Of a stretch of 64,000 nucleotides of DNA, positions 59,207 through 61,176 are shown in pieces. The number at the start of each line of letters is the position of its first letter. The first letter of the stretch is position 1. Source of the DNA: Anaerobiospirillum thomasii (GTDB lineage Bacteria; Pseudomonadota; Gammaproteobacteria; Enterobacterales; Succinivibrionaceae); the NCBI RefSeq assembly GCF_900445255.1, contig NZ_UAPU01000007.1, positions 636,001 to 700,000 on the forward strand, read 5' to 3'. The notes under the pieces were generated by a model. The model searched no databases. It saw nothing but the letters and a program-made list of their open reading frames with translations, and was not told where the DNA came from. Made by a program: the position numbers and the translations under genes.

Positions 59207-59281
59207 GTTCCCATAGTTAAATGGATATAACAAGCCCCTCCTAAGGGCTAGTTGTAGGTTCGATTCCTACTGGGAACGCCA
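59207..59281 (+). tRNA. tRNA-Arg (anticodon CCT)
   Basis: A 75-nt cloverleaf with acceptor GTTCCCA (59207-59213) paired to TGGGAAC (59271-59277) and encoded CCA at 59279-59281. The anticodon loop CTCCTAA gives CCT, reading AGG. The T-loop AGGTTCGATTCCT is canonical. An AlbA_2-type gene follows 105 bp later, and AGG is used heavily in its repeat. Confidence 0.96.
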
Positions 59282-59385
59282 TCTGCCTCTCCCCACTCCT
59301 CATTGACAGCATAGATTTTTTGCCAATAAAGTCATATTATTCTAAAATCAACGTTGTCAGTAAAACCTAAGGAGCTTACGATTTA

Positions 59386-61176
59386 ATGACTAATGATGAA
59401 CTTGAAAATCTTATACGCTCTGGGGAAAATATTCATACTGAATTTAAACAGTGCACAAAAAATATAACCAAGGATTTGTATGATACAGTCTGCTCCTTTT
59501 CCAACCGCGATGGCGGCATAATCATTCTTGGTGTAAAAGATGATGGCGAAATTATTGGAATAGATACTGATGCACAAGAGAAAATTATAAAGGACTTTGT
59601 AACTGCAATTAATAATACACAAAAAATAAGCCCTTCTCTTTATTTAGTGCCACAGAAATATACCATTAATACTAAAGACTTATTTGTTATAGAAGTTCCA
59701 GCATGCTCGGTTGTATGCAGGCATAATGGCCGTATTTTTGATAGAAATCATGAGTCAGACATTGATATTACAGATAACGCCGACATGGTATATCAACTAT
59801 ACGCAAGAAAAAGCACTACTTATTTTGTAAATAAAGTAACTCACTTTACTCTTGACGATCTGAGATCTGATCTTATTGATAGAGCTCGCCTCATGGCCAA
59901 TGCCAGAACAGCAGCCCATCCTTGGAAATTGTTATCAAATGAAGAATTGCTAAGAAGCGCCGGCTTGATTCTAAAGGACTCAGAAAACGGTTTTGAAGGT
60001 GTGACAATTGCGGCAATTCTACTCTTTGGCAAAGACAGCACCATTATGTCTATATTGCCCCAACATAAGACTGATGCAATTCTAAGAGTAAAAAATCTTG
60101 ATAGATATGATGATCGTGATGTAATTTCAACCAACCTGCTAGAGTCTTATGACAGACTGATGGCATTTGGCCAAAAGCACCTGAATGATACATTTATTAT
60201 GGAAGGCATTCAAAGTGTCAGCGCAAGAGATCACATTCTACGTGAAATTTTCTCTAACAGTCTTGCCCATAGAGATTACTCCAGCCCCTATATTGCAAAA
60301 TTCGTTATTGAGGCCGATAAATTATATACAGAAAATGCTAATCGCTGTAATGGCTATGGATTACTAAAAATATCCTCTTTTCAACCTTTTGCTAAAAATC
60401 CTCCTATATCTAAGGTCTTTAGAGAAATAGGACTTGCAGATGAGCTTGGTTCAGGAATGCGCAATACTTTCAAATATTCGCATCTTTATTCAGGTGAGCT
60501 TCCAGAGTTTTTCGAGGGCAACATATTTAAAACAACTATACCCCTAAACAGCACTGATATTGCAGCAACAAAAGCAAAGCCTTCCATGCTGGGCATAAAT
60601 CATAGCCAATCCTGGCAAAATATTACTGATAATACATGTGATAAGACCTATGATGAGACACATGATAGGACCCATGATAAGACCCATGATAAGACCTATG
60701 ATAAGACCCATGATAGGACCCATGATAAGACCCATGATAAGACCCATGATAAGACCTATGATAGGACACATGATAGGACCCATGATAAGACCTATGATGA
60801 GACACATGATAGGACCTATGATAAGACCCATGATAGGACCCATGATGAGACACATGATAGGACCCATGATAAGACCTATGATGAGACACATGATAGGACC
60901 CATGATAAGACCTATGATAAGACCCATGATAGGACCCATGATAGGACCCATGATGAAATTCAGGTCAAAATCCTTAATTTCTGTATAACACCACACACAA
61001 AGTCTGAAATTGCACAATACTGCGGATATAAAAATACAAAGAGCTTCACTCAAAAATATCTGCGGCCTTTACTTGATGGACAAAAACTTCAAATGACACT
61101 TCCAGACAAACCAAAAAGTAAAAATCAGCAATATGTAACAAAGGCAGAAGTTATAGGCGTTATTAAAGATTTATAA
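59386..61176 (+). CDS. AlbA_2/Schlafen-type ATP-binding protein with a 26-unit tetrapeptide repeat
   Basis: A 596-residue protein. Residues 1-140 form an AlbA_2 (Schlafen-fold, proposed nucleic-acid-binding) domain with the family pattern 'E-F-K' at 19-21 and 'G-G-I-I-I-L-G-V-K-D-D-G' at 43-54. A GHKL-type ATPase-like region follows, with the conserved Asn block 'R-E-I-F-S-N-S-L-A-H-R-D' at 286-297. Residues 420-523 are 26 tetrapeptides of the type (K/R/E)-T-(H/Y)-D. The C-terminal 70 residues look like a winged helix. Such proteins are often transcription factors or defence-associated, but no partner is present here. It lies 3' of a tRNA gene, a common integration site, yet no integrase is visible. 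Confidence 0.85.
   Translation: MTNDELENLIRSGENIHTEFKQCTKNITKDLYDTVCSFSNRDGGIIILGVKDDGEIIGIDTDAQEKIIKDFVTAINNTQKISPSLYLVPQKYTINTKDLFVIEVPACSVVCRHNGRIFDRNHESDIDITDNADMVYQLYARKSTTYFVNKVTHFTLDDLRSDLIDRARLMANARTAAHPWKLLSNEELLRSAGLILKDSENGFEGVTIAAILLFGKDSTIMSILPQHKTDAILRVKNLDRYDDRDVISTNLLESYDRLMAFGQKHLNDTFIMEGIQSVSARDHILREIFSNSLAHRDYSSPYIAKFVIEADKLYTENANRCNGYGLLKISSFQPFAKNPPISKVFREIGLADELGSGMRNTFKYSHLYSGELPEFFEGNIFKTTIPLNSTDIAATKAKPSMLGINHSQSWQNITDNTCDKTYDETHDRTHDKTHDKTYDKTHDRTHDKTHDKTHDKTYDRTHDRTHDKTYDETHDRTYDKTHDRTHDETHDRTHDKTYDETHDRTHDKTYDKTHDRTHDRTHDEIQVKILNFCITPHTKSEIAQYCGYKNTKSFTQKYLRPLLDGQKLQMTLPDKPKSKNQQYVTKAEVIGVIKDL
60643..60954 (+). repeat. 312-bp array of 26 twelve-bp units inside the AlbA_2 gene
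   Basis: Units are near-identical at DNA level and come in few types: AAGACC(T/C)ATGAT, AGGACCCATGAT and GAGACACATGAT. Every unit is 12 bp, so changes in copy number keep the reading frame. All six frames stay open through the array, so the hydrophobic antisense frame and the MIRP-rich sense frame are shadows. Each unit ends in the codon GAT for aspartate. Confidence 0.97.

What the first reader, a model, noticed from the sequence alone, without database searches (positions are those of the whole stretch)
60643..60954. 26 perfect-length 12-bp repeats joining AlbA_2/ATPase and winged-helix parts
The array encodes (K/R/E)-T-(H/Y)-D units that are almost identical at DNA level, so it is recent or kept homogeneous. 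Unit length keeps the frame, so copy-number change would alter linker length, not switch the gene off. A highly charged, hypervariable linker in a nucleic-acid-binding ATPase-like protein is unusual.
Basis: partly seen in the sequence, partly recalled or inferred. Interest (0 to 1): 0.72.

Follow-up and report, generated by a model that had tools for sequence, protein, structure and literature searches.

The report
Stretchable tether in bacterial Schlafen-like protein
A bacterial protein related to anti-viral Schlafen enzymes has its two halves joined by 26 copies of a four-amino-acid unit; nearly all its relatives carry a short version of such a stretch, with a different unit sequence and copy number, so the tether's length can change quickly while the rest of the protein stays the same.

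Summary
The array is real: 26 in-frame 12-bp units at 60643-60954 inside a 596-codon gene. The gene encodes a Schlafen/AlbA_2 domain, a GHKL-like ATPase core, then the array, then a Fic-like_C winged helix. What is unusual is its length. In most of 91 family members examined, the same site holds 2-6 tetrapeptides. The unit type changes at least 17 times on the core tree (for example xTQV, SDQV, VPHD, VAHD, GEVS, GEIN, RGHD, THDK). Near-identical genes differ by whole 12-bp units; L038 and L039 are identical over the last 1000 bp of core but have 5 and 4 units. Ninety-one N-terminal cores contain no such arrays. Linker length is narrow (median 36.5 aa, interquartile range 34-43), and the window (140 aa) is an extreme outlier. 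The same kind of repeat precedes the wHTH in Fic proteins. AlphaFold gives the window array no structure (pLDDT about 31-36). Best reading: a slippage-prone, length-variable disordered tether between a predicted RNase/ATPase core and a wHTH, comparable to the TAEL repeats of HsdS. That length tunes function is inferred, and neutral slippage is the main rival.

The parts
59386..61176 (+). host gene, 596 aa: SLFN_AlbA_2 - GHKL-like core - tetrapeptide array - wHTH
   Evidence: fold match to DIP2311 (3lmm)
59369..59374 (+). AAGGAG ribosome-binding site, 11 nt before the ATG
   Evidence: sequence
59425..59760 (+). Schlafen AlbA_2 domain (aa 14-125); E14 and E19 invariant, D52 at 90% or more in 43 relatives
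60226..60543 (+). GHKL-like ATPase region (about aa 281-386; HATPase_c_4 at 329-379, below cut-off); invariant N291, H295, D297 and L354-M358 (LGSGM)
60619..60642 (+). two decayed units (NITD, NTCD) at the 5' edge of the array
   Evidence: sequence
60643..60954 (+). 26 x 12-bp in-frame array, (K/R/E)-T-(H/Y)-D, aa 420-523; predicted disordered tether
60961..61134 (+). Fic-like_C winged helix (aa 526-583); helix 1 starts in the last array unit (residue 519)
59207..59281 (+). tRNA-Arg(CCT) directly upstream. FlgT plus tRNA-Arg is conserved in the family, but this gene lies beside them only in the window genome

Best explanation
The array is an in-frame minisatellite that forms a disordered, length-variable tether. 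It joins a Schlafen-type (predicted RNase) plus GHKL ATPase core to a C-terminal winged helix. Shown here: (1) the array and its place in the protein; (2) most relatives carry a 4-residue array at the same place, with different unit sequences; (3) near-identical genes differ by whole units; (4) the arrays are confined to this linker and absent from the cores; (5) linker length stays within a narrow band while unit sequence turns over. Inferred: units are gained and lost by replication slippage or unequal exchange of 12 bp. What selection keeps is the length and disorder of the tether, not a particular sequence, because it sets how far the wHTH (sensing or target-binding end) can reach from the core. 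Change in copy number is then a quick, reversible way to retune the protein without switching it off, as in the TAEL repeats of HsdS. The window's 26-copy array is a recent runaway expansion of a normally about 4-copy tether.
For: Arrays between core and wHTH in most of 91 members; DNA-level periods of distinct arrays 12 bp 47, 24 bp 15, 36 bp 1, 42 bp 2, 15 bp 2; 0 of 91 N-terminal cores have one; flanks have 27 in 445 kb, some of them other genes of this family. L038 and L039 have identical last 1000 bp of core but 5 and 4 units; L101 has about 10 units against 4 in L106/L108 with 93-96% identical cores; L073 has 5 and L087 2. Linker median 36.5 aa, IQR 34-43, n=88, window 140, while unit type changes at least 17 times on the core tree. 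pN/pS 0.49 pooled over 90 arrays detected at DNA level. pLDDT 31-36 across the array against 81-97 in most of the AlbA_2 and wHTH domains. Own-genome paralogue L002 carries (NTDI/M)n at the same place. Fic proteins carry TPQV repeats before the same wHTH.
Against: No functional data. The window array itself shows no purifying selection between units (pN/pS 1.07). Several members have no clear array (L011, L090, L096, L103), so it is not essential. Within-strain or within-species variation could not be tested. In a broader HATPase_c_4 sample only about a quarter (27 of 101) have repeats, with periods of 7, 11 and 14 aa besides 4. The relatives examined are the best 80 of 511 and are phylogenetically clustered.
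Confidence: 0.58

Rival explanations
1. Neutral slippage. The linker is unconstrained, so any short in-frame repeat that arises there expands and contracts without effect; the window copy is a neutral outlier.
For: Disordered in the model; pN/pS 1.07 in the window array; arrays of 2 to more than 40 units and repeat-free members all exist; unit sequence is nearly free.
Against: Linker length is narrow (IQR 34-43 aa) despite unit turnover; pooled pN/pS 0.49; strong preference for 4-residue units at this site over 5, 6 or 9.
Confidence: 0.33
2. Sequence-specific multivalent binding. The repeated T-H/Y-D-K/R/E units bind metal, nucleic acid or a partner protein.
For: His/Asp in every unit; some relatives also carry HD/HE units (VPHD, VAHD, RGHD).
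Against: Most relatives' units have no His and different chemistry (TQV, SDQV, STEV, GEVS) at the same place; no ordered structure predicted.
Confidence: 0.05
3. The 12-bp repeats act as DNA, for example as iteron-like operator sites for the protein's own wHTH or as a recombination seam for swapping wHTH modules.
For: Repeat type tends to go with wHTH type, and the C-terminal half differs between near-identical cores (L054/L055, core 97%; L008/L012, core 92%); wHTH type changes at least 8 times on the core tree.
Against: Unit DNA differs between relatives with the same wHTH type; units are not palindromic; silent differences between units are common, so protein sequence is kept better than DNA.
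Confidence: 0.03
4. Assembly artefact (false expansion).
For: 312 bp of near-identical repeats is hard for short reads; read data were not available.
Against: Six unit types in non-periodic order, decayed edge units, frame kept; the contig is 1.3 Mb in a 10-contig genome; relatives carry the same kind of array, though shorter. Short-read assemblers usually collapse repeats and do not expand them.
Confidence: 0.03

Closest known systems
TAEL repeats of HsdS in type IC restriction-modification (EcoR124I/II), PMC3874165
   Same: 12-bp in-frame repeat coding for 4 residues between two functional domains; copy number changes their spacing and not the frame.
   Different: HsdS repeats number 2-3, are helical and alter the DNA recognition gap. 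Here there are 26 units, predicted disordered, in an unrelated protein with no known specificity change.
Schlafen RNase fused to a minimal histidine kinase (GHKL) and wHTH, BREX-linked (PMC12839542)
   Same: Same domain order; the paper reports it in at least 1017 taxa near BREX loci.
   Different: The passages read in that paper (a search for Schlafen/AlbA) do not mention the linker arrays; the window gene sits alone after a tRNA, not in a BREX locus.
DIP2311 of Corynebacterium diphtheriae (PDB 3lmm)
   Same: Best structural match to the model across AlbA_2, GHKL-like and wHTH parts (Foldseek E 4e-17; VIA Z 19.1, 395 aligned, rmsd 12.2).
   Different: 19% identity; its linker was not examined here.
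Fic proteins with a C-terminal Fic-like_C wHTH (PDB 4rgl, Dde_2494)
   Same: Same wHTH (Z 11.1, rmsd 2.2 over 71 residues) preceded by GDQV-TDQV in 4rgl and TPQV repeats in others.
   Different: N-terminal Fic (AMP-transfer) domain in place of Schlafen-GHKL; only 2-3 units.

Membership tests
Schlafen AlbA_2 (SLFN_AlbA_2, PF04326) | Profile match above Pfam's curated cut-off | tested here: met
   60.6 bits against 25.3; fold matches to SLFN5/11/13/14 and the SAMD9 tRNase domain
Schlafen AlbA_2 (SLFN_AlbA_2, PF04326) | E-x4-E plus a downstream acid (nuclease triad of the SLFNs) | tested here: inconclusive
   E14 and E19 invariant and aligned with ES...EF of SLFN5/SLFN11; D52 at 90% or more, but its one-to-one match to the SLFN Asp is uncertain by a residue
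Schlafen AlbA_2 (SLFN_AlbA_2, PF04326) | RNase / tRNase activity | not testable with these tools
   needs a biochemical assay
GHKL ATPase, HATPase_c_4 (PF13749) | Profile match above cut-off | tested here: inconclusive
   17.9 bits against a cut-off of 26, yet the fold aligns with 3lmm over this region
Fic-like_C winged helix (PF21247) | Profile match above cut-off at the C-terminus | tested here: met
   40.8 bits against 27, aa 526-583; structure match 4rgl
TAEL-type linker repeats of HsdS | 12-bp in-frame unit whose number varies between otherwise near-identical genes | tested here: met
   shown for relatives (L037/L038/L039/L044, L101/L106); not testable for the window gene itself
TAEL-type linker repeats of HsdS | Host protein is a type I specificity subunit with target recognition domains | tested here: not met
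   domains are SLFN_AlbA_2 and Fic-like_C
TAEL-type linker repeats of HsdS | Copy number changes specificity or function | not testable with these tools
   no functional data
Anti-phage defence systems | Match to a described defence gene and location in a defence island | tested here: inconclusive
   PADLOC gave only weak partial pAgo-related matches; neighbours are FlgT, tRNA-Arg and an M48 protease

The most novel reading that the evidence does not exclude
Recurrent tetrapeptide minisatellites before the winged helix of Schlafen-GHKL and Fic proteins are an undescribed class of hypermutable length-tuning elements. Replication slippage continually produces tether-length variants of a suicidal anti-phage RNase, spreading its activation threshold or target reach across a population.
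Probability: 0.22. Interest if true: 0.75.

Novelty: new variant of a known kind. Interest (0 to 1): 0.52.

Why it matters
Bacterial Schlafen-GHKL-wHTH proteins are widespread (at least 1017 taxa near BREX loci in one survey, PMC12839542), and how their nuclease is switched on is not established by anything found here. A linker that keeps its length while its sequence is repeatedly rebuilt from new 12-bp repeats, and that changes by whole units between near-identical genes, points to tether length as a functional setting. That would extend the TAEL principle of type I restriction enzymes to a large family of predicted immune effectors, and it gives a simple test by copy-number variants. If neutral, it is still a clean natural system for slippage in a tolerated linker.

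Tried and rejected
Array DNA in 98 related genomes: only the window matched. Single-sequence genome-contig scan: 36 pattern stretches but no relative; the alignment-based scan succeeded. E. coli strain-level variation: L239 and L228 had no match, and L234 matched only the neighbouring hsdM. Type I RM linkage of the subfamily: no HsdM-like ORF in flanks of L035-L114 by motif scan, so not general. tRNA 3'-end direct repeat as an att site downstream of the gene: none in the window. Metal-binding array: rejected family-wide from unit chemistry. Helix or DNA-pitch reading of the periods (4, 7, 11, 14, 18 aa): noted but not claimed, because Pro-containing units (VPHD, TPQV, NPQV) cannot be helical and 5-aa units also exist (L049, L064). 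Protein-level pN/pS was replaced by DNA-level detection, because selecting arrays by amino-acid identity biases it. Literature: no paper on these repeats was found in the library; absence there is weak evidence. A structural match to other families that is absent is not taken as exclusion.

Full report
OBSERVATION. It is the only tandem array that TRF finds in the 64-kb window, and 60643-60954 divides into 26 units of 12 bp. Only columns 1, 2, 6 and 7 vary, six unit types exist, and the two single-copy types are recombinants of variants already present. No copy has a private mutation, and two decayed units (NITD, NTCD) flank the 5' edge. This is the picture of recent expansion or continuing homogenisation. 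Every unit keeps the frame of a 596-codon ORF with a ribosome-binding site.

THE PROTEIN. Pfam finds SLFN_AlbA_2 (aa 14-125), a below-threshold HATPase_c_4 (329-379) and Fic-like_C wHTH (526-583). AlphaFold on a 43-sequence alignment gives most of the core and the wHTH good confidence, while residues 395-520 have pLDDT of about 31-48, around 31-36 across most of the array. Helix 1 of the wHTH starts inside the last repeat unit. The best fold match is DIP2311 (3lmm); the N-terminal domain matches Schlafen and SAMD9 tRNase domains and the wHTH matches that of a Fic protein, 4rgl. E14 and E19 are invariant among 43 relatives and align with the first two acids of the Schlafen nuclease site; the third acid is near D52. 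A 2026 survey describes the same domain order, Schlafen RNase - minimal histidine kinase - wHTH, as a common BREX-linked predicted suicidal effector (PMC12839542). RNase activity of this protein is therefore an inference.

RELATIVES. The alignment-based scan found 511 related loci; the best 80 are mainly Clostridia, up to 73-74% identical, whereas the aligned relatives in the window's own family (Succinivibrionaceae) are 39-55% identical (best segments 51-67%). Identical cores occur in Actinomycetes, Tissierellia and Clostridia (L092-L094), and the Succinivibrionaceae copies need 7 changes on the core tree. The gene is evidently mobile across phyla, and a 55%-identical copy lies in a mycoplasma phage. 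In the window it lies 104 bp after a tRNA-Arg(CCT); FlgT-tRNA-Arg is conserved in relatives, but this gene is beside them only here.

THE LINKER IS A REPEAT SITE IN THE WHOLE FAMILY. Between the end of the core and the wHTH most members carry tetrapeptide arrays: TTQV, (R/G)TQV, SDQV, NPQV, VPHD, VAHD/VAQG, GEVS, STEV/STEA, GEIN, AINE, RGHE/RGHD, TPQD, TTQG, NGTR, NTDI/M. At DNA level the distinct arrays in the subfamily have periods of 12 bp (47), 24 bp (15), 36 bp (1), 42 bp (2) and 15 bp (2). The 91 N-terminal cores have none, and 445 kb of flanks have 27, several of which are other genes of this family. Fic proteins with the same wHTH carry TPQV units in the same place. In a broader sample of HATPase_c_4 proteins from the order, 27 of 101 have repeats, with periods of 4 or 8 aa (15), 7 or 14 aa (8), 11 aa (2) and others.

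COPY NUMBER CHANGES BY WHOLE UNITS. L038 and L039 are identical over the last 1000 bp of core but have 5 and 4 units; L037, L044 and L048 have 4, 3 and 3. L101 has about 10 units against 4 in L106/L108 with 93-96% core identity; L073 and L087 have 5 and 2; L088 and L089 differ by two units.

LENGTH IS KEPT, SEQUENCE IS NOT. Across 88 members the linker has median 36.5 aa and interquartile range 34-43, while unit type changes at least 17 times and wHTH type at least 8 times on the core tree (the unit labels are coarse and the tree is a quick one). The window (140 aa) and L064 (242 aa) are outliers. Pooled over 90 arrays detected at DNA level, pN/pS between units is 0.49, but it is 1.07 in the window array. 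The constrained thing in the family is thus mainly a short, flexible tether, and the window's long version looks like a recent runaway.

MECHANISM. Most likely 12-bp slippage or unequal exchange continually rebuilds a disordered tether that sets the distance between the Schlafen/GHKL core and the wHTH. The closest precedent is HsdS of EcoR124I/II, where 2 or 3 copies of a 12-bp TAEL repeat set the spacing of two DNA-binding domains (PMC3874165). The step from length variation to a functional effect is inferred. The main rival is neutral slippage in a tolerant linker, which the window's own pN/pS and the repeat-free members allow and which the narrow length distribution argues against.

NOVELTY. 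Intragenic in-frame repeats in linkers are known, and the protein architecture is known. I found no description of these arrays in the papers searched. I therefore file this as a new variant of a known kind.

Noticed in passing
L092, L093, L094: Identical Schlafen-GHKL cores, arrays included, in Kallipyga, Alterileibacterium and Actinotignum: very recent transfer across phyla.
   Followed up: partly
window 59207-59281; L269 2801-2877: The slot after FlgT holds one of two quite different tRNA-Arg(CCT) genes (75-nt and 77-nt types) in different Succinivibrionaceae; the window and its genus-mate G011 have different types.
   Followed up: partly
L234 1-1901: In this relative an AlbA/GHKL gene with TTEV repeats lies directly beside a type I restriction hsdM gene.
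   Followed up: no
L064 2989-5058: Relative with a linker of about 242 aa made of 5-residue SDQ(D/E)x units; a neighbouring ORF carries TQNPDGSx (24-bp) repeats.
   Followed up: no
L071 and L079 flanks: Neighbouring ORFs (possibly Rpn/PD-(D/E)XK type, a guess from memory) end in EGRA/EGMATGRA repeats, another 12- or 24-bp coding array.
   Followed up: no
MW353172.1 14296-15555: A mycoplasma phage carries a 55%-identical homologue annotated as an ATP-dependent DNA helicase.
   Followed up: no
L054 vs L055; L008 vs L012: Cores 97% and 92% identical in DNA but clearly different linker and wHTH, suggesting exchange or very fast evolution of the C-terminal module.
   Followed up: partly
HATPase_c_4 sample L145-L254: Repeat periods in the wider family are 4, 7, 8, 11, 14 and 18 aa, which match multiples of 3.5-3.67 residues (or 10.5 bp); 5-aa units in L049/L064 are exceptions. 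Meaning unknown.
   Followed up: no
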